Source: Thermoplasmata archaeon (GTDB lineage: Archaea; Thermoplasmatota; Thermoplasmata; Thermoplasmatales; Thermoplasmataceae). From it: a stretch of 11,033 nucleotides of DNA. The notes below the pieces were generated by a model that did not search any database, was not told where the DNA came from, and was given only the letters and a program-made list of their open reading frames with translations. This document shows, piece by piece, positions 1 to 10,904 of the stretch; the stretch's first letter is position 1, and the number at the start of each line of letters is the position of its first letter. The stretch covers positions 1-11,033 of the forward strand of contig JAJZZZ010000045.1 of NCBI GenBank assembly GCA_021797265.1. The letters run 5' to 3'. The translations under genes were made by a program, and so were the position numbers.

Positions 1-2845
1 TTGTGGTGGAGTTTCTTCTCTTGAGCCCTTCCTTCTCGTAAGTGGATCCATACCATCCGGGGAATACACCTCTGCTCACTGCCAGTATTTCGGATTCAGA
101 GTGGGATTCTTCATCAAGGAAGCTCATAACTCTCTCCGCCATTTCAAGGCCTGCACCGCTGTTGTAAGATATGCCAAGGAGCATGAGAAGGTCTGCGAAT
201 CCCATGTAGCCGAGGCCGATCTTCCTTGTAGTCCTTGCCATCTTCTCGATCTTATCAACAGGGAATTTGTTGGCGTCTATGACATTGTCAAGGAACTTTG
301 TGGAAAGGTGCACGACTTCCTTCAGATGGTTCCAGTCCACCTCTCCATTCTTCACGAACTTGCTCAGGTTTATTGATCCCAGGTTGCATGGCTCGTATGG
401 CATAAGCGGCTGTTCTCCGCAGTTGTGGACAACAAGGCCATTGGCTATAAATGAGTGTGTGGTTGGCTCAATGAGATCAAATACCTCCTCCTCGCCATCA
501 TCTGTTATGGATTCCACTGTTGCAATCCAGTTTTGGGTATAAGGGCCTCTTTCGTAGCCCTCAACAATAGCTCCAAGTTTTGCTGTCTTGCGTTCTGATA
601 AGAAACCTATCTTCTGATGGAATCTTACAAGCCCTTCACCTGTAATTACGAGGTCATGGTATGCCTGGGCATGGTACAGTGTGGGCTCTCTGATTGAATT
701 TGGCATCTCGGCATCCCTATCTTTCTTCCTGTTCCTGTAGATTCGGCTGTAAATGCCGAAGTTCAGAAGCAGCATTTGGGTTTCCTGAAGAAGTTCTTCA
801 CTGACAGAGGCAAGACTTATGCTGTGCCTTGATCTTGATGTGCTGGCAACGGTTCCGTCTGATTCAAAAAGTGCTTGGAGAAACCCCTTTTGCATTGCCT
901 CTGTGCCCATAAAGACTGCGTCAGGGATCCTTAACTTGTTTTCCAGTAGTCCCATCTGTGCAGCATACTCCTTCAGTCTTTCTGAGGACACCGTGCTGAG
1001 GTTCCTGCTTTCAATATTCACTACAGATATGTGGTATTCTCTGTCAATTGAGGCAGGCCTGACAATGCTGTTCACGTATTCGGCAAACTCCTGTGACAGA
1101 GGCCTATCCTGATCATAGAAGGAAAGAACAGCCCGCTTGTTGCCCGGGCCATGGTTGATGTGCCCGTCTCCAACAAGCCAGCCCAGTACGCGTCCTGATT
1201 CTAGGCCGCCTTCGGTTCCGAAGGCTCCTGGGTTGCTTAAAACTCTTATCTTTTCTCCCATTCTGAGGTCACCAGCCTTTACCCAACCTCTCTCGTGGCT
1301 GAATATCAGATGGTCTTCGGTGACACGGATACCGAAGCCTTCCCTTGTCCTGAGCTTAATAATCTGCTTTATCCCGGTGGAAATTATGTTAGAGGCATGC
1401 TGCAGTTTTCTCCCTGAGTTTCTCTTGTCGGTGACAACATCTATGGGATTTCCTTCTTTGTGAAGATCAAATGCCCGCATGAGCCCGTTGGAAGTATACA
1501 CAAGAGTATCTCCAGTAATGCACGGGTTTGTTGCCTCTATGTCTGCAATGTGCCTGACAGGGTTTTTCCTGTTCATCTCATCCAGGAAAATTAAGCCTGG
1601 ATCTGCGGTCTGCCATGCCTTGTTTATGATGGTGTCCCACATGGTCTTGGCCTTGATCCTGTTTATGATCTTGCCGCTCCTGGGGCTTCTGAGCTCTATG
1701 TAGTCATCTGAATCCAGTTTCTCAAAGAATTCATCATCCATTCCAACGGAAATGTTGAAGTTGCTGAGGATGGTGTTTTCCGCATCCTTGCTGAGTATGA
1801 AGTCCATGATATCCGGGTGGTCATACCTCAGTATGCCCATGTTGGCTCCTCTTCTCTTTCCACCCTGCTTGATGATGTCTGTGGTGACATCGAAAATCTT
1901 CATGAATGAGACAGGTCCTGAGGCAACTCCCTTAGTTGAACCGACAAGGTCGTCTCTCTCCCTGAGTCTTGAGAATGAGAAACCCGTGCCTCCGCCTGAC
2001 TTGTGGATCATAGCCTGGTATTTTAGTGATTCAAATATGTCCTCAATGCTGTCAGAAACCGGGAGGACGAAGCATGCTGAGAGCTGCCCCAACCTTGCGC
2101 CAGCGTTCATCAGTGTTGGCGAATTCGGAACGAATTCAAGGTTGCACATTACATCATAATACTTCTCAATGGTGTCGGTGGCAGTGGTTGGCTTTGAGTA
2201 AACAAAGTTGAGGAACTCTTCAAATGTGCCTTTGAGCTCCTTCTCATTTATCAAGTGGTCATGTGCCCTTTCCAGCACTTCCATCTGCGTCTTTGAGATT
2301 GCTCCGAACACCTTGCCGTCCTTGGGTGCTTTCCCTGTTTTCTGGTACGTCCTGAAATCATAAAGGAGTTCAACCACGCCAACGTGGGAGGCAACTCTTC
2401 TGAACATCTGGGTTGGTGTTTCAACGATTTTTCCATCCTCGTCCTTGAGGAGGTATCTGGCCTCAAGTGTCTTGATTGCGTTTATTGAGAGCTTAAGGTC
2501 ATCTGTAACCCCCAGCCTGGCCTTTTCTTCCCTAATTGTTCTTCTCTTTTCTCTGTACAGAATGTATGCCCTGGCAACCTCGTTGTATCTGTTCCCCTTC
2601 TTAGAGGTGGTCATAAGGACATTTTCAACCTTGTCCTGAACCTGCTCAACTGTTGGCGTAAGGGTTTCCTTTTCAACTTCGGAAACAACCTTTGCCGCAA
2701 TTTCATCAGCTTCCTTCATTGAGCCGGTTTTAACAGAGAGCATTGCTTTGTAAATGGCCCTGGAGATCTTTGATACGACAAAATCCACCTCGGTTCCATC
2801 TCTCTTGATTATTTTCTTTATCTTGTGTTCATGCTCATTAATCAT
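1..2845 (-). CDS. nrdJ: Class II (B12-dependent) ribonucleoside-diphosphate reductase, intein-containing, 3' end cut by window
   Basis: Reduces ribonucleotides to deoxyribonucleotides by radical chemistry; the class II enzyme uses adenosylcobalamin. The frame is open from the start to the window edge. Residues about 5-95 are an ATP-cone (KRDGTEVDF). Then come SACFVLPV with the first redox cysteine (C258), KSGGGTGFSFSRLR at 283-295 and KQGGKRRGANMGILR at 326-340. ATNP (438-441) leads to C442, where an intein of 367 residues begins. After it the protein resumes with CGEQPLMPYEPCNLGSINL, the finger loop with catalytic Asn, Cys and Glu. The visible part ends at GLKRRNSTT, just before the expected APTGTIS motif, so the C-terminal cysteine pair lies outside. 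The SGGGTGFSFSRLR and KRRGANMGIL signatures fit NrdJ better than class I NrdA. The chosen start is ATG at 2845; in-frame ATGs at 2878 and 2884 are alternatives, and neither has a clear Shine-Dalgarno or a well-placed TATA box. I saw no nrdB-like gene here. Confidence 0.95.
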   Translation of the reverse strand, partial: MINEHEHKIKKIIKRDGTEVDFVVSKISRAIYKAMLSVKTGSMKEADEIAAKVVSEVEKETLTPTVEQVQDKVENVLMTTSKKGNRYNEVARAYILYREKRRTIREEKARLGVTDDLKLSINAIKTLEARYLLKDEDGKIVETPTQMFRRVASHVGVVELLYDFRTYQKTGKAPKDGKVFGAISKTQMEVLERAHDHLINEKELKGTFEEFLNFVYSKPTTATDTIEKYYDVMCNLEFVPNSPTLMNAGARLGQLSACFVLPVSDSIEDIFESLKYQAMIHKSGGGTGFSFSRLRERDDLVGSTKGVASGPVSFMKIFDVTTDIIKQGGKRRGANMGILRYDHPDIMDFILSKDAENTILSNFNISVGMDDEFFEKLDSDDYIELRSPRSGKIINRIKAKTMWDTIINKAWQTADPGLIFLDEMNRKNPVRHIADIEATNPCITGDTLVYTSNGLMRAFDLHKEGNPIDVVTDKRNSGRKLQHASNIISTGIKQIIKLRTREGFGIRVTEDHLIFSHERGWVKAGDLRMGEKIRVLSNPGAFGTEGGLESGRVLGWLVGDGHINHGPGNKRAVLSFYDQDRPLSQEFAEYVNSIVRPASIDREYHISVVNIESRNLSTVSSERLKEYAAQMGLLENKLRIPDAVFMGTEAMQKGFLQALFESDGTVASTSRSRHSISLASVSEELLQETQMLLLNFGIYSRIYRNRKKDRDAEMPNSIREPTLYHAQAYHDLVITGEGLVRFHQKIGFLSERKTAKLGAIVEGYERGPYTQNWIATVESITDDGEEEVFDLIEPTTHSFIANGLVVHNCGEQPLMPYEPCNLGSINLSKFVKNGEVDWNHLKEVVHLSTKFLDNVIDANKFPVDKIEKMARTTRKIGLGYMGFADLLMLLGISYNSGAGLEMAERVMSFLDEESHSESEILAVSRGVFPGWYGSTYEKEGLKRRNSTT
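422..1522 (-). other. Intein with LAGLIDADG homing endonuclease, in-frame in nrdJ
   Basis: This is a self-splicing protein insert of 367 residues. It starts with Cys1 (CITGDTLVYTSNG, splicing block A), has block B as TEDHLIFSHERGW (T68, H71), and ends in block F/G as EEEVFDLIEPTTHSFIANG followed by LVVHN, with penultimate His366 and terminal Asn367. The first downstream residue is Cys, the required +1 nucleophile. Between the splicing blocks lies a two-motif LAGLIDADG (DOD) endonuclease: block C is VLGWLVGDGHIN (Asp119, bases 1154-1189) and block E is FLQALFESDGT (Asp222, bases 851-883). I translated the whole insert and found no stop or frameshift, so splicing and endonuclease both look intact. 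RNR inteins are an established group in archaea and bacteria. The host junction is ATNP/C...HN/CGEQPL. Base composition is not visibly different from the host gene. Confidence 0.96.
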
Positions 2846-3263
2846 ACTCTCATCTCGCTTTTTCGTTGTCGGTAACATTATCATTTCTCAGAGGTACAAA
2901 TCTTTTTTTTGTCACCAGAATCTGTTATTGCTTGGTAACCATATCTGGTAATACATTATCTGATTTGATCACAATCATGATAACTAATGTTTTACACGTT
3001 CTGATCATATTAAATTTTTTTAGTGTTAACTGAGACTTATCTCTTATATGGCAATTGCAAATTTGATAATAAACTTCATCCCAGACATTGTAATATTGCT
3101 GTTTTAGATAATATGTATTATAATATATCACTATATAGAAAACCATTGGAACAGTGATGTTGTTTTTGTTATTTGTTAACAGGTGTGAATGAATGACTTC
3201 CCATTAATTTCCTTGTTGAAAATCCTGTTCAAATTTAATATTCGTCTTCAATATCTCATACTC
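2846..3263. other. AT-rich divergent intergenic region between nrdJ and the ftcD operon
   Basis: About 400 bases without a convincing gene, visibly richer in A and T than the flanking genes. It must hold the nrdJ promoter (leftward) and the operon promoter (rightward). Rightward TATA-like boxes lie at 3234-3242 (annotated separately) and at 3131-3138 (CTATATAG, with more A/T-rich sequence from 3118). The second would place a transcript start near 3157, where a 12-codon reading frame begins (see findings). For nrdJ the best leftward TATA-like stretch is the reverse complement of 3004-3012, which would leave a leader of roughly 100 bases or more; this is weak. GCAATTGC at 3051-3058 is a perfect 8-base palindrome. 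No tRNA-like fold, CRISPR repeat or hairpin terminator was seen. Confidence 0.6.
3234..3242 (+). promoter_or_regulatory. TATA-like box for the ftcD-fchA-ilvA operon
   Basis: TTTAATATT is centred about 26 bases before the ATG at 3264, the spacing expected for an archaeal leaderless transcript starting at or next to the start codon. There is no Shine-Dalgarno before that ATG, which fits leaderless initiation. It also helps choose 3264 over the in-frame ATG at 3189. The box was read by eye and is not experimentally supported. Confidence 0.5.
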
Positions 3264-4160
3264 ATGAAGACAGTCGAATGCGTTCCAAATTTCAGTGAAG
3301 GGCGCAATCGTGGTAAAGTGGAGCAGATTGTTGAAGCGATATCTTCTGTGGAAACTGTGAAGATTCTCGACATGGAACTTGATGAAAATCATAACAGAAG
3401 CGTAGTTTCATTCACTGTTGGGCTTGAGCATGCGGTGGAGGCGGCGTTTGCAGGGATTGCCAAAGCTGCACAGCTGATTGATCTGAACAAGCACTCCGGT
3501 GAACACCCAAGATTTGGCGCATCCGACGTTATACCTTTCATACCGTTATCAGGGGCCACTTCTGATGACTGCATAAAGCTTTCAAGAGAACTGGGGAAGA
3601 AAGTTGGTGAAGAACTCCAGATACCAGTTTACATGTATGCAGATGCAGCTTTTCTTGAAAACAGAAAAAGCCTCGAGAACATAAGGACAAAAAGCTTCCA
3701 GTTTGAGGAACTCAGGGCCTCAATAGGTGAGGCTGAATGGAAACCGGATTTCGGGCCTGCAAAGATCGGCCCGGCGGGTGCAAGCATAATTGGAGCCAGG
3801 GATTTTCTAATTGCATACAATGTTAACCTGAACACCCAGGACATATCCATCGGAAAGAAGATTGCCAAAGCACTCAGGGCAAAAGACGGTGGCTTCACCT
3901 TTGTGAAAGCGCTGGCTTTCTTTCTGGAAGACAAGAAGATGGTGCAGATCTCAATGAATCTGACCAATTACAGGAAAACCCCCATACACAGGGTTTTTGA
4001 GTTAGTGAAGCTGGAGGCTTCCAGGTATGGGGTTTCCGTTGTGGAATCAGAAGTAGTTGGCCTGGTTCCGCTTGAAGCCATGACAGAGGCTGCAAAATTC
4101 TACCTTCAGCTTAATGGTTTCAAAGGAGACCAGATCCTTGAAAAGAAGATGTGGGGATGA
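3264..4160 (+). CDS. ftcD: Glutamate formiminotransferase
   Basis: Transfers the formimino group from N-formimino-L-glutamate to tetrahydrofolate, giving glutamate and 5-formimino-THF, a late step of histidine degradation. The 298-residue product has the length of a free-standing formiminotransferase, corresponding to the N-terminal half of the bifunctional animal enzyme. It opens with MKTVECVPNFSEGRNR, the family's N-terminal signature. KHSGEHPRFGASDVIPFIPL at 76-95 carries His81, which by motif alignment from memory matches the catalytic His82 of the pig enzyme. IGPAGASIIGARDFLIAYN follows in the middle, where the second subdomain begins. The frame is open back to an ATG at 3189, which would add 25 hydrophobic residues, but the family start and the TATA box at 3234-3242 both point to 3264. 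Its stop overlaps the next gene's start as ATGA, so translation of the pair is probably coupled. Confidence 0.92.
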   Translation: MKTVECVPNFSEGRNRGKVEQIVEAISSVETVKILDMELDENHNRSVVSFTVGLEHAVEAAFAGIAKAAQLIDLNKHSGEHPRFGASDVIPFIPLSGATSDDCIKLSRELGKKVGEELQIPVYMYADAAFLENRKSLENIRTKSFQFEELRASIGEAEWKPDFGPAKIGPAGASIIGARDFLIAYNVNLNTQDISIGKKIAKALRAKDGGFTFVKALAFFLEDKKMVQISMNLTNYRKTPIHRVFELVKLEASRYGVSVVESEVVGLVPLEAMTEAAKFYLQLNGFKGDQILEKKMWG

Positions 4161-4777
4161 AAATGGAATCATTAGACAGCTTTGTGGAAAGGCTTGCAAG
4201 CGCTAGCCCGGCACCAGGCGGTGGGGCTGCCAGCAGCCTGGTGGCTGTTGTCGGTGCGGCCCTCACATCAATGGTGGCAGGACTCACATTGGGCAAGAAA
4301 GGATATGAGGACAGCCAGAAAATTGCAGAGCAGGTTTCCAAAAGGTCTTCTGAACTGAGGGCAGAACTTCGGGACTTGATGGGTCAGGACGAGGAGGCTT
4401 TCGACAAAATTGTTGCGGCATGGAAGATGCCAAAGTCCACCGACGACGAGAAGGCTGAGAGGGAAAAGGAACTTCAGATTGCAACAATGGATGCCATAAG
4501 GGTTCCCTGGAAAATAGCATCAGCTTCGCAGGAAGTTCTGAGGATATCGGCATTGTTGGTTTCTTATGGTAACCGGAATGCCATAACTGACGCAGGCTGC
4601 TCACTGGAGTTTTCACTTGCTGCCCTGAAGGGCGTAATCCAGAATATACGGATAAACCTCAAATCACTCAAGGATCCGGAAATGGTGGAAATGGAACAGC
4701 TGAAGATCAAACTGTTTCTTGAGGATTCGGAGCAGATTTACCGTGACGCAATGAAGGAACTTGAAAGAAAGCTTTAG
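4157..4777 (+). CDS. fchA: Formiminotetrahydrofolate cyclodeaminase
   Basis: Converts 5-formimino-THF, the product of the preceding enzyme, to 5,10-methenyl-THF and ammonia. The 206-residue, largely helical protein has the family signature ASASPAPGGGAASSLVAVVG near residues 15-34, DEEAFDKIVAAWKMPK near 77-92 and YGNRNAITDAG in the C-terminal half. Many bacteria and animals fuse this domain behind the formiminotransferase; here the two are separate but overlap by four bases (ATGA at 4157-4160). An in-frame GTG at 4151 and an ATG at 4163 are other possible starts; 4157 is preferred because of the overlap. It is the second gene of the operon and needs the folate made available by the first step. 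The two neighbours support each other's identification. Confidence 0.92.
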   Translation: MKMESLDSFVERLASASPAPGGGAASSLVAVVGAALTSMVAGLTLGKKGYEDSQKIAEQVSKRSSELRAELRDLMGQDEEAFDKIVAAWKMPKSTDDEKAEREKELQIATMDAIRVPWKIASASQEVLRISALLVSYGNRNAITDAGCSLEFSLAALKGVIQNIRINLKSLKDPEMVEMEQLKIKLFLEDSEQIYRDAMKELERKL

Positions 4778-4781
4778 GTGA
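4776..4781 (+). promoter_or_regulatory. Shine-Dalgarno site for the dehydratase gene
   Basis: AGGTGA is complementary to the conserved 3' end of archaeal 16S rRNA (AUCACCUCC). It lies six bases before the GTG at 4788 and supports that non-ATG start. It overlaps the stop codon of the cyclodeaminase gene, as expected for an internal operon gene that is not leaderless. Confidence 0.7.
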
Positions 4782-4787
4782 AATAAA

Positions 4788-6008
4788 GTGAAAGACGGAT
4801 TGCCTGAATTAAAGGATATAAAGGAAGCTCAGAAATATCTCAATGGAAAGACCAACAGGACCCAGCTTGCCAGGTCTACTACATTCAGTGAAATGCTAGG
4901 GGGAACCATATTCTTCAAGATGGAAAACCACCAGAAGACCGGTTCTTTCAAGGCAAGAGGTGCCCTCTACAGGGTGTCAAAGCTTACACCAGAGGAGAGA
5001 AAGAAAGGCGTGATAACTGCCAGTTCCGGCAACCATGCGCAGGGTGTCGCTTATGCAGCAAAATATAACGGGATATCTGCAAAAATTGTCATGCCCGAAT
5101 TCACCACCCCGGCGAAGATCAACGCGGTTCAGGGATATGGGGCGGAAGTAGTTCTAGGCGGGGCAGACTACACTGAGGCAAAAGCCATTGCAGACAGGAT
5201 AAGGGAAGAGGAAGGCCGTATATTCATAGAGGCATTCAATGACCCTTACATTATTTCCGGCCAGGGTACAGTGGGGCTTGAAATCATGGAAGAACTCCCG
5301 GACGTTGATATGATCGTGGTTCCAATTGGAGGCGGCGGGCTAATGTCAGGGATATCAATTGCAGCAAAGAGCATCAACCCCAAGGTCAGGATAATCGGGG
5401 TGGAATCAGAGCTGTCTGATTCAATGCTCAAGTCAGTCGAGGAGGGAAAGATAGTTCCCCACACAAGCGGGCAGAGCATTGCTGAGGGCATATCGGTGAA
5501 GTACCCGGGCGAACTGACATTCAAAGCGGTGCGCCAGAATGTGGATGAGATAGTGACTGTCAGCGACGAATCCATTGCACTTGCCATATACAAACTTCTG
5601 GAAAGAAACAAGACCCTGGTTGAGCCATCAGGTGCGGCCGCTGTTGCAGCGCTGATGGACCACAAGATCGATGTGAGGGGAAAGAAAGTGGCAGTTATCC
5701 TATCTGGCGGGAACATGAACTTCCTCCTGCTCTCCAAGATAATCTACAAGTCTCTTGAGATCGAATCTAAACTGGTCAGGATTGAATTCAAGATACCAGA
5801 CAAGCCTGGAACTCTCTACAGGATCGCATCTGTTATTTCGGAAATCGGGGGGAACATCTACCACGCGGAAGTGGACAATCTGGCCCGGAATACTCCTGTG
5901 GGATACCAGACCGTTACTTTCACAGTTAACGTAAGGGACGAAACCCACCTGGGAGTGCTCCTAGATAAAGTCAAACTACTGGGATACAAGTTTGAGGTAG
6001 TCACCTGA
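4788..6008 (+). CDS. ilvA: Threonine ammonia-lyase (threonine/serine dehydratase) with C-terminal ACT domain
   Basis: A PLP enzyme that deaminates L-threonine to 2-oxobutanoate, often L-serine to pyruvate as well. The catalytic fold-type II domain spans about 20-320: KTGSFKARGA contains the Schiff-base lysine K55, SSGNHAQG (79-86) is the substrate loop, GGGG (181-184) is the phosphate-binding loop, and LSGGN (306-310) is near the cofactor ring. A single ACT domain follows from about residue 328 (RIEFKIPDKPGTLYRIA), so allosteric control by an amino acid is likely. The 406-residue length fits threonine dehydratases with one C-terminal ACT domain. The start is GTG with a good Shine-Dalgarno. 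Its position behind two histidine-degradation genes suggests a catabolic role, but isoleucine biosynthesis cannot be excluded. The last 8 bases overlap the convergent acylphosphatase gene. Confidence 0.9.
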   Translation: MKDGLPELKDIKEAQKYLNGKTNRTQLARSTTFSEMLGGTIFFKMENHQKTGSFKARGALYRVSKLTPEERKKGVITASSGNHAQGVAYAAKYNGISAKIVMPEFTTPAKINAVQGYGAEVVLGGADYTEAKAIADRIREEEGRIFIEAFNDPYIISGQGTVGLEIMEELPDVDMIVVPIGGGGLMSGISIAAKSINPKVRIIGVESELSDSMLKSVEEGKIVPHTSGQSIAEGISVKYPGELTFKAVRQNVDEIVTVSDESIALAIYKLLERNKTLVEPSGAAAVAALMDHKIDVRGKKVAVILSGGNMNFLLLSKIIYKSLEIESKLVRIEFKIPDKPGTLYRIASVISEIGGNIYHAEVDNLARNTPVGYQTVTFTVNVRDETHLGVLLDKVKLLGYKFEVVT

Positions 6009-8516: not shown

Positions 8517-10904
8517 TTGCAAGAAACAACTTCACCAAAGAAGATCATTATCACAGAAAAGGCTGATGCAGCAAGGAGAATTGCCTATATTCTCTCAAAT
8601 GGGACCTCCAAGCAGAAGAGATCTAAAGGCCTCAATTACATTGAATTCGGAGAGGGGGATGACCGGCATGCAGTCATTCCACTTAGCGGGCATATAGTGG
8701 CAATTGATTTCAACGACAGCATGAAGGACTGGAAATCCACAAAGCTGGAGAATCTCATTTCCTCAAACATTGTCCACAAAGTAACCAACAAGAGCGCATT
8801 CAACAGCCTTGTATCTCTCACAGACAAGGCTGACAGCATCATTGTTGCCACTGACTATGACAGGGAAGGGGAACTTATCGGTGTTGAGGCACTGGACATA
8901 GTGGACAGGAATGTGCTCCAGAAGGTGAAATCAAATCCTGAAATCAAGCGTGCACGATTCAGCGCCCTCACACCAGACGACATAAGGAAGGCATTTGCTG
9001 AACTTGCTGATGTGGACAACGACTTAGCTCAGTCAGCGTCAGCAAGGGAAGAAATTGACCTTTTCTGGGGAGCAGTCCTCACAAGGTTCTTTTCATTGAC
9101 CTCAAACCGCCTGGGAAAAAATTTTCTGTCAGTTGGAAGAGTGCAGACCCCTACACTGGCGCTTGTTGTGAGGAAGGAGATCGAAATCCGTGACTTCGTG
9201 GAGAAGCCTTACTGGACAATCAGCATACTGTTCAACAAGAAGAGGGATTTCCTGGCAACCTCCAAGGAAGGGGCAATCTGGGAACGGAAAGATGCCGACA
9301 GGATTTACGAGGAAATCAACGGTCGAAACGGGACGGTCAAGGAATTCTCCAGGAACGATGAAAGGATATACAAGCCTCCACCATTCAACACCACAGAGTT
9401 TATCAGGGAAGCTTCCAGGATTGGAGTCCAGCCGGGAAGGGCTATGAAGATTGCCGAGGGCCTCTACACAAGGGGATTCATCAGTTACCCAAGGACCGAC
9501 AATACAGTCTACCAGAGGTCCATAAACCTCAAGGGTGTCTTGAACAAGCTCAAGGATACTGAGTTTTCTGAACTGGTCAAGAAAGTGCTGGAACAGGAGA
9601 CGATCAGGCCCTCAAGGGGAAAGACTGAGGCAACCGATCACCCTCCTATCTATCCGGTATCAGCCGCAAAACAGTCTGATCTGAGGGGTGATTACTGGAA
9701 AATCTACGAACTCATTGTGAGGAGATTTCTGGCCACACTTTACAGGGAAGGGACAAAGGAAGTCTCTTACGCCCTCATTGATGTCAATGGCCATGATTTT
9801 GAGTCCAGGGGACAGACCATAAAGGATCATGGCTGGCTCGAACTCTATCCATACAGGAGGGTCGAGGAGACATTGATCCCGGAGCTTCAGCCAGGAACAG
9901 AGGTTAAAGGCAAAGAATGGAACCTTAACGAGGAAATGACCAAACCACCAAGAAGATACGACATGGCTTCACTCATAAAGAAAATGGAGGAACTGAACCT
10001 TGGAACAAAGAGCACAAGGCATGACATTATAGAAAAACTCCAGATGAGGGGCTTCATTGAGGGTAATCCGGTCAGGCCCACACATCTGGGAATGGGGCTC
10101 ATAGAGGCGCTTCTCATGGTACATTCCACAATTACTGAGCCCGACATGACGGCGACCCTTGAAACTGAAATGGATGGAATAGCAAACAGGAAGAAGACCA
10201 AGTCAGATGTGGTGCAGATTTCCAAGGATATGTTGCTGGATGTCCTGGAGCAGTTCAGGACCAAGGAGGCAGTCATAAGGGAGACTATCATAAGTTCCCT
10301 GAGGAAGGGAAACCCCGTTGGGAAATGCCCTATCCATGGCATGGACATAGTCCTGATGAGGAACAAGGATTATTCCAGGCTCAAGTGCGAACAGGAAGGC
10401 TGTGTTATTGATTTTCCCAGCCCACTAAGAGGCACTCCTCAAATCCTGGAGGACAAATGTGAGGAATGCGGCCTTCCGCTGATAAGGGTGATCAGGAAGG
10501 GACAGTCACCTGAGACCAGATGCATCAATCCCAAGTGCCAGTTTAACTCAAACAGAATCCTTATGGGTAAGTGCCCGCAGGACAATGGAGATCTCATTAT
10601 TCGCCAGTCAAGGTTCGGCAAACGGTTCCTTGGCTGTTCAAACTATCCCAAGTGCACAACAACCTACCCTCTGCCGCAGATGGGCCAGCTCAAGAACACA
10701 GGGGAAATATGCGAAGAGTGCGGGGCACCCCTAATAATAGATTTCAGGAACGGCAGGGCATGGAAGTTCTGCCCCAAGATGGACTGCAAGTACAACAAGG
10801 AAAAGAAAGCCAAGCCAAAAGAAACTGGCGACAAAGAGAAGCCAAAGGAGAAAAAGAAGAGTGTGAAAAGCAGTGGCAGGCGCACTAAAAAGCAAAGTTC
10901 CTGA
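8517..10904 (+). CDS. topA: DNA topoisomerase I (type IA) with C-terminal zinc fingers
   Basis: Relaxes negatively supercoiled DNA by single-strand passage through a 5'-phosphotyrosine intermediate. The 795 residues contain a TOPRIM domain with IITEK (Glu14) and ATDYDREGE (Asp113, Asp115), SVGRVQTPTL (206-215), and the catalytic Tyr324 in FISYPRTDN. Residues about 600-760 hold four zinc-finger-like repeats with cysteines/His at 604/607/624/629, 648/651/669/674, 686/707/713 and 732/735/752/757; the third has Asp689 where the second cysteine is expected. A lysine-rich tail (761-795) follows. There is no helicase domain, so this is not reverse gyrase. TTG at 8517 is the only possible start between the upstream in-frame stop (8406) and the TOPRIM motif, which begins nine residues later; the ATG at 8509 is out of frame. 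The 3' end overlaps the next open frame by 32 bases. Confidence 0.95.
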   Translation: MQETTSPKKIIITEKADAARRIAYILSNGTSKQKRSKGLNYIEFGEGDDRHAVIPLSGHIVAIDFNDSMKDWKSTKLENLISSNIVHKVTNKSAFNSLVSLTDKADSIIVATDYDREGELIGVEALDIVDRNVLQKVKSNPEIKRARFSALTPDDIRKAFAELADVDNDLAQSASAREEIDLFWGAVLTRFFSLTSNRLGKNFLSVGRVQTPTLALVVRKEIEIRDFVEKPYWTISILFNKKRDFLATSKEGAIWERKDADRIYEEINGRNGTVKEFSRNDERIYKPPPFNTTEFIREASRIGVQPGRAMKIAEGLYTRGFISYPRTDNTVYQRSINLKGVLNKLKDTEFSELVKKVLEQETIRPSRGKTEATDHPPIYPVSAAKQSDLRGDYWKIYELIVRRFLATLYREGTKEVSYALIDVNGHDFESRGQTIKDHGWLELYPYRRVEETLIPELQPGTEVKGKEWNLNEEMTKPPRRYDMASLIKKMEELNLGTKSTRHDIIEKLQMRGFIEGNPVRPTHLGMGLIEALLMVHSTITEPDMTATLETEMDGIANRKKTKSDVVQISKDMLLDVLEQFRTKEAVIRETIISSLRKGNPVGKCPIHGMDIVLMRNKDYSRLKCEQEGCVIDFPSPLRGTPQILEDKCEECGLPLIRVIRKGQSPETRCINPKCQFNSNRILMGKCPQDNGDLIIRQSRFGKRFLGCSNYPKCTTTYPLPQMGQLKNTGEICEECGAPLIIDFRNGRAWKFCPKMDCKYNKEKKAKPKETGDKEKPKEKKKSVKSSGRRTKKQSS

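What the first reader, a model, noticed from the sequence alone, without database searches (positions are those of the whole stretch)
419..1525. Intein placed exactly at the thiyl-radical cysteine of ribonucleotide reductase
The insert begins at the cysteine of ATNPC and ends before CGEQPL, so the +1 splicing nucleophile is also the catalytic Cys of the NxCxE finger loop (N440, C442 in spliced numbering; equivalent to Cys439 of E. coli NrdA by motif). Unspliced enzyme must be inactive, and splicing could act as an on-switch for DNA precursor synthesis. RNR inteins are known, including, as I recall, in Ferroplasma, so the class is not new, but this allele sits at the most conserved point of the gene.
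Basis: partly seen in the sequence, partly recalled or inferred. Interest (0 to 1): 0.7.

Follow-up and report, generated by a model that had tools for sequence, protein, structure and literature searches.

The report
Homing intein in archaeal ribonucleotide reductase
A self-splicing, self-spreading protein insert (intein) interrupts an archaeon's DNA-building-block enzyme exactly at its catalytic cysteine; this is a known, widespread insertion site, a nearly identical relative lacks the insert, and it looks like a mobile parasite rather than a switch.

Summary
A 367-residue LAGLIDADG intein (window 422-1522, minus strand) interrupts a class II, B12-dependent ribonucleotide reductase (NrdJ) of a Thermoplasmata archaeon, between Pro and the catalytic Cys of ATNP|CGEQPL. 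Its +1 nucleophile aligns with Cys322 of Thermotoga maritima NrdJ. The site is not new: all 119 of 120 listed homologues with an intact N-junction have NP before the intein, in archaea and bacteria, and Ferroplasma's copy was catalogued in 2014 as rir1-b. What I add is strain-level evidence: a genome whose DNA is 99.5% identical over 5.3 kb has the empty site. Of 117 genomes in the order, 15 are occupied, 66 empty, 26 undetermined and 10 unmatched. Inteins have moved between lineages in at least one clear case (82% intein DNA identity against 66-68% in the exteins). Both endonuclease aspartates are present, so homing explains the pattern. The proposed on-switch has no positive support. One oddity remains: all 119 copies have Pro at -1, a residue described in print as incompatible with splicing, so splicing rates at this site deserve measurement.

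The parts
2..2884 (-). nrdJ precursor gene (class II RNR large chain with ATP-cone), incomplete: runs off the window start
   Evidence: open frame of 961 aa; Pfam domains; TIGR02504 NrdJ_Z 498.6 bits, cut-off 399.95
1523..2884 (-). N-extein, ending ...EATNP
   Evidence: 100% identical protein in the intein-less L016
422..1522 (-). intein, 367 aa, 41.1 kDa, splicing domain plus LAGLIDADG endonuclease
   Evidence: PF14890 and PF14528; model pLDDT 85.8 matching solved endonuclease inteins
1520..1522 (-). intein Cys1, first splicing nucleophile
   Evidence: Cys in 118 of 118 complete homologous inteins
1310..1321 (-). block B, T68-E-D-H71
   Evidence: T68 and H71 in 118 of 118
1157..1186 (-). first LAGLIDADG motif LGWLVGDGHI with D119
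   Evidence: D119 in 114 of 118
851..883 (-). second LAGLIDADG motif FLQALFESDGT with D222
   Evidence: D222 in 118 of 118
422..433 (-). block G, VVHN, penultimate His366 and terminal Asn367
   Evidence: Asn in 118 of 118, His in 112 of 118
419..421 (-). +1 Cys: second splicing nucleophile and catalytic Cys of spliced NrdJ
   Evidence: aligned with Cys322 of T. maritima NrdJ
1523..1525 (-). -1 Pro codon; differs synonymously from the empty allele at its third base, as does the Asn codon at 1526-1528
   Evidence: NP in 119 of 119 listed homologues with this junction
2..421 (-). start of the C-extein; 10 synonymous differences from the empty allele in 421 bases

Best explanation
A full-size class 1 intein with an apparently intact LAGLIDADG homing endonuclease occupies the known rir1-b site of nrdJ. 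The precursor removes it autocatalytically: acyl shift at Cys1, transfer to the +1 Cys, Asn cyclisation. The +1 Cys then serves as the catalytic Cys (inferred from conserved residues, not shown). At the DNA level the endonuclease cuts empty nrdJ alleles at the codons of the catalytic loop, and repair copies the intein in with some flanking DNA (inferred from sequence traces). It persists by homing and because imprecise loss at an essential residue would be lethal. No regulatory role is needed.
For: Domains, splicing residues invariant and endonuclease Asp kept in 114 of 118 (D119) and 118 of 118 (D222), fold. Empty site in a 99.5%-identical locus. Ten synonymous differences in the 421 bases downstream and two abutting the intein, against 25 in the next 5298 upstream bases. 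15 occupied and 66 empty of 117 genomes; at least 6 changes of state forced on the extein tree. L020/L028: intein DNA 82.3%, exteins 66.0 and 67.6%. L035/L036: 3.1 kb identical across the intein. L038: both endonuclease aspartates lost but splicing residues kept.
Against: No donor of the window's intein was seen; its nearest listed relative is 72% identical. In only 7 of 120 intein pairs is the intein more alike than the mean of the two exteins, and four of those seven include or neighbour L037/L032 with small or doubtful margins. Occupancy is clustered on the tree (1-2 of 500 shuffles as low), with ten occupied rows in one clade, so much of it is vertical. L035/L036 are again identical from -956 to -1300, so ordinary recombination could also have made the tract. 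Splicing and cleavage were not measured.
Confidence: 0.93

Rival explanations
1. Regulatory on-switch: splicing is slow or conditional (redox, metal, temperature, folding), so the intein gates dNTP synthesis to the host's benefit.
For: The site must block catalysis until splicing. Pro at -1 is described as disrupting the first splicing step (PMC13123727 passages). Precedents: an intein in A. aeolicus R2 raised iron content and doubled activity (PMC8772380 passages); conditional splicing is reviewed in PMC7765530 (passages).
Against: A close allele and at least 66 of 117 genomes lack the intein. Only Cys1 in the intein, and 34 of 118 homologues likewise, so no conserved internal disulfide partner. 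14 of 15 inteins in the order keep both endonuclease aspartates, as homing predicts.
Confidence: 0.05
2. The empty L016 allele arose by precise loss from an occupied ancestor, rather than the window's copy by recent gain.
For: Counts of change cannot tell gain from loss. The window intein's nearest listed relative is only 72% identical, so no recent donor is seen.
Against: The four nearest relatives on the extein tree (L016, L022, L041, L042) are all empty. Synonymous differences abut the site and are denser downstream, as co-conversion would leave (post hoc).
Confidence: 0.2
3. Assembly artefact: the insert was joined into nrdJ wrongly.
For: The window is a metagenome-type contig with no whole genome held.
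Against: Reading frame, both junctions and catalytic residues are intact; a cluster of 9 member sequences holds the same full-length protein (P0002); 119 other precursors show the same architecture.
Confidence: 0.01

Closest known systems
rir1-b intein allele (Ferroplasma acidarmanus fer1, Ferroplasma sp. Type II, Halobacteria, many bacteria; PMC4071816, passages)
   Same: Same host gene; Ferroplasma homologues (P0019, P0030) have the same NP|C...N|CGE junctions and a LAGLIDADG domain. Identity of the allele is inferred through Ferroplasma, since the passages give no insertion coordinates.
   Different: About 55% identical to Ferroplasma copies in the intein; nothing structural.
NrdJ-1 split intein (PDB 8ubs; PMC13123727, passages)
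   Same: RNR intein at the same catalytic loop; profile match
   Different: Split, native junction NPC|SEI, one residue downstream, +1 Ser, so it avoids Pro at -1
TliVMA and PI-PfuI, endonuclease-bearing inteins (PDB 7qsu, 1dq3)
   Same: Splicing domain plus LAGLIDADG fold, Foldseek E 6.9e-21 and 2.1e-19
   Different: 20% and 16% identity; TliVMA is in a V-type ATP synthase chain
Mth RIR1 mini-intein (pTWIN2; PMC9033041, one passage)
   Same: RNR intein; recalled, not checked: same site, natural Pro at -1
   Different: Mini-intein without endonuclease (passage and recall)

Membership tests
Class 1 intein | Cys/Ser at intein position 1, TxxH block B, terminal Asn, Cys/Ser/Thr at +1 | tested here: met
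   Cys1, T68-E-D-H71, Asn367, +1 Cys; PF14890 52.9 bits, cut-off 35.8
Class 1 intein | Autocatalytic splicing with ligation of the exteins | not testable with these tools
   needs expression
LAGLIDADG homing endonuclease | Two LAGLIDADG motifs with acidic catalytic residues | tested here: met
   D119 and D222 present; PF14528 82.2 bits, cut-off 22.5
LAGLIDADG homing endonuclease | Cleavage of the empty site and homing | not testable with these tools
   only sequence traces
rir1-b allele | Same insertion site and sequence clade as the catalogued rir1-b inteins | tested here: inconclusive
   Site shared with Ferroplasma homologues, and Ferroplasma is listed as rir1-b; the catalogued sequences themselves were not aligned
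Class II RNR (NrdJ) | NrdJ model above cut-off and catalytic NxCxE loop | tested here: met
   TIGR02504 498.6 bits, cut-off 399.95; NPCGE aligned with T. maritima NrdJ

The most novel reading that the evidence does not exclude
Because the catalytic loop fixes Pro at -1, rir1-b inteins must splice after a residue held to be incompatible with splicing. They may have evolved a special solution to the first acyl shift, or splicing may be gated by folding of the RNR barrel around the loop, so that the intein acts as a built-in delay on dNTP synthesis.
Probability: 0.1. Interest if true: 0.6.

Novelty: new member of a known kind. Interest (0 to 1): 0.24.

Why it matters
It is an ordinary member of a large, known family, but it gives a natural matched pair (occupied window, empty L016) at about 99.5% flanking identity. 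That allows clean tests of homing, of co-conversion and of whether the intein affects its host. The invariant Pro at -1 raises a concrete chemical question about how this widespread allele splices.

Tried and rejected
Search of the window's own genome: none is held. Viral contigs: one scan of close-relative patterns gave one hit, L019, 27% identical and in a terminase-like gene; this does not exclude a viral donor. Rfam at gathering thresholds: no RNA family in the window. Redox switch by a disulfide inside the intein: rejected, one Cys only; a disulfide with an extein Cys is not excluded. Contigs of G013 and G091 seemed to enter an intein; read directly, they are empty sites ending NPCGEQPLLPYES. 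L037 drops from identity to heavy divergence at -346 upstream (544 differences); it may be a chimeric assembly and I do not lean on it. The 120 listed homologues are the best-scoring of 2404, so they favour endonuclease-bearing inteins and the 114 of 118 count is biased that way. The AlphaFold2 model covers the intein alone. Literature searches covered open-licence papers only; one search found none with Cys322 and T. maritima NrdJ. All papers were seen as passages only.

Full report
What is there. One open frame on the minus strand (2..2884) encodes a B12-dependent ribonucleotide reductase with an insert. The insert is 422..1522, 367 residues, 41.1 kDa. The protein reads ...EATNP|CITGDT...GLVVHN|CGEQPL.... 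Pfam finds ATP-cone, both RNR large-chain domains, Intein_splicing and LAGLIDADG_3. An AlphaFold2 model of the insert (mean pLDDT 85.8, pTM 0.87, 16-row alignment) matches endonuclease-bearing inteins best: 7qsu (TliVMA), E 6.9e-21, and 1dq3 (PI-PfuI), E 2.1e-19.

The catalytic residue. The intein-less protein of L016 aligns with T. maritima NrdJ so that NPCGE pairs with residues 320-324, Cys on Cys322. That Cys322, and E. coli NrdA Cys439, carry the thiyl radical is recalled by me; one search found no held paper with those terms. The precursor should be inactive until spliced (inference).

Not a new site. A search restricted to residues 455-830 of the window's precursor (the intein plus nine residues) found 2404 proteins, of which the best 120 are listed (P0002 is the window's own). 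Of these 120, 119 have NP directly before the intein and one (P0013) lacks its N-terminus; 119 have C[GA]E directly after it (four of them CAE) and one (P0103) lacks its C-terminus. Names given by sources include Ferroplasma, Acidiplasma, Halobacteria, Chloroflexi, Actinobacteria and Acidobacteria. PMC4071816 (passages only) lists Ferroplasma acidarmanus fer1 and Ferroplasma sp. Type II under rir1-b, an allele with 15 halobacterial, 55 bacterial and 5 other euryarchaeal members. I infer that the window's allele is rir1-b; I did not align the catalogued sequences. Reviews already say that inteins sit in active sites of conserved enzymes (PMC7765530, PMC5874633, passages), and the A. aeolicus R2 intein separates iron ligands (PMC8772380, passages).

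The empty site in a near-identical genome. One genome-contig scan gave 18 loci, 5 of them with an intein at this place (L006, L008, L012, L013, L018). L016 (JAMDCA010000014.1) matches the window at 99.49% over 5305 bases and 97.6% over the remaining 421. It has no intein and encodes an intact 799-residue NrdJ whose N-extein protein is 100% identical. Base by base, the two differ at -1 and -4 next to the intein, then nowhere until -694, with 27 differences in 5302 upstream bases; downstream there are 10 in 421, all synonymous, since the first 129 residues are identical. From -4 to +421 there are 12 differences in 425 bases against 25 in the next 5298 (p 8e-6, chosen post hoc). Co-conversion during homing leaves such a pattern, but no donor was found. 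Homing with co-conversion is described for haloarchaeal MCM inteins (PMC10643990, passages).

Distribution in the order. A search of 117 genomes with P0002 gave matches in 107. By the printed match table, which is cut short, 15 carry the intein in one frame and 64 have an N-half ending at residue 453 in a frame of 680 aa or more (handles typed). G013 and G091, read directly, are also empty. That makes 15 occupied, 66 empty, 26 undetermined and 10 without a match. At least three of the empty genes (G058, G083, G107) carry one stop codon in the matched part. The empty genomes at 52-56% identity (G005-G025, G044) may hold a different NrdJ subfamily. In the 34 loci examined, 19 empty and 15 occupied, the site reads [AS]TNP|CGEQPL in all, with no extra base in the empty ones.

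Movement. On an extein tree of 34 rows (18 empty, 16 occupied) the label needs 7 changes, 6 forced by well-supported branches; shuffles average 11.6-11.7, and 1-2 of 500 are as low. So there is both persistence within clades (10 occupied rows form one clade) and repeated gain or loss. The four rows nearest to the window are empty (L016, L022, L041, L042). L020 and L028 have intein DNA 82.3% identical but exteins 66.0 and 67.6%: the one clear horizontal case. L035 and L036, from two genomes, are identical from -159 to +1880 across the intein, about 3.1 kb; 40 differences lie between -160 and -955, none from -956 to -1300, and 15 between +1881 and +2444. The tract is therefore asymmetric, and ordinary recombination is not excluded. 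Of 120 intein pairs, the intein is more alike than the mean of the exteins in 7, clearly so only in L020/L028 and in pairs with the doubtful L037; it is less alike in the window against all 15 others, which fits long independent residence.

Endonuclease and splicing residues. Of 120 homologues, 118 inteins were complete: Cys1, T68, H71, D222, D349 and N367 are invariant in them, D119 is kept in 114 and the penultimate His in 112. In the order, L038 has lost both endonuclease aspartates and 31 residues of length but keeps Cys1, the TxxH motif and the terminal His-Asn; the other 14 keep both aspartates (L036 and L037 inteins are identical to L035). Active-looking, decayed and empty states coexist, as the homing-cycle model (recalled) expects.

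On the switch idea. Nothing here supports regulation directly. The intein has no Cys besides Cys1, and 34 of 118 homologues are alike in this. A near-identical allele and many relatives do without it. Against my reading, an RNR intein with a benefit is in print: A. aeolicus R2 made with its intein had more iron and twice the activity (PMC8772380, passages). And one fact keeps the question open: Pro at -1 is present in all 119 listed copies with this junction, because the host loop is NPC[GA]E. [quoted passage not shown] the NrdJ-1 split intein studied there has the native junction NPC|SEI, one residue downstream. I recall that the Mth RIR1 intein splices poorly with its natural -1 Pro, but that paper is not held.

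Verdict. Observation confirmed. A self-splicing, homing parasite is very likely. The site is known. The on-switch is unsupported. The matched empty and occupied alleles and the -1 Pro question are what is worth following.

Noticed in passing
L019:3542-6100: A viral contig encodes an 852-aa terminase-like protein interrupted by its own intein (26.6% identical to the window's, terminal VSN instead of VHN); the terminase naming is my reading of the sequence.
   Followed up: no
L037:442-3816: nrdJ of G110: intein and C-extein DNA 100% identical to L035, but the N-extein only 72%, with the break at -346 upstream of the intein: far co-conversion or a chimeric contig.
   Followed up: partly
P0042: A 1596-aa relative with extra endonuclease Pfam domains (PF05204, PF14527) besides this intein, suggesting a second intein in the same RNR.
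   Followed up: no
P0040, P0043, P0064, P0096, P0105, P0114: Six homologous inteins have Ala or Ser instead of the penultimate His.
   Followed up: no
3189-6008 (+): Glutamate formimidoyltransferase (FtcD), a methenyltetrahydrofolate cyclohydrolase-like protein (176.5 bits, below its cut-off of 275) and threonine ammonia-lyase lie in a row with overlapping or near-adjacent ends.
   Followed up: no
8517-10904 (+): DNA topoisomerase I (PRK07220, 801 bits, cut-off 635), apparently without an intein.
   Followed up: no
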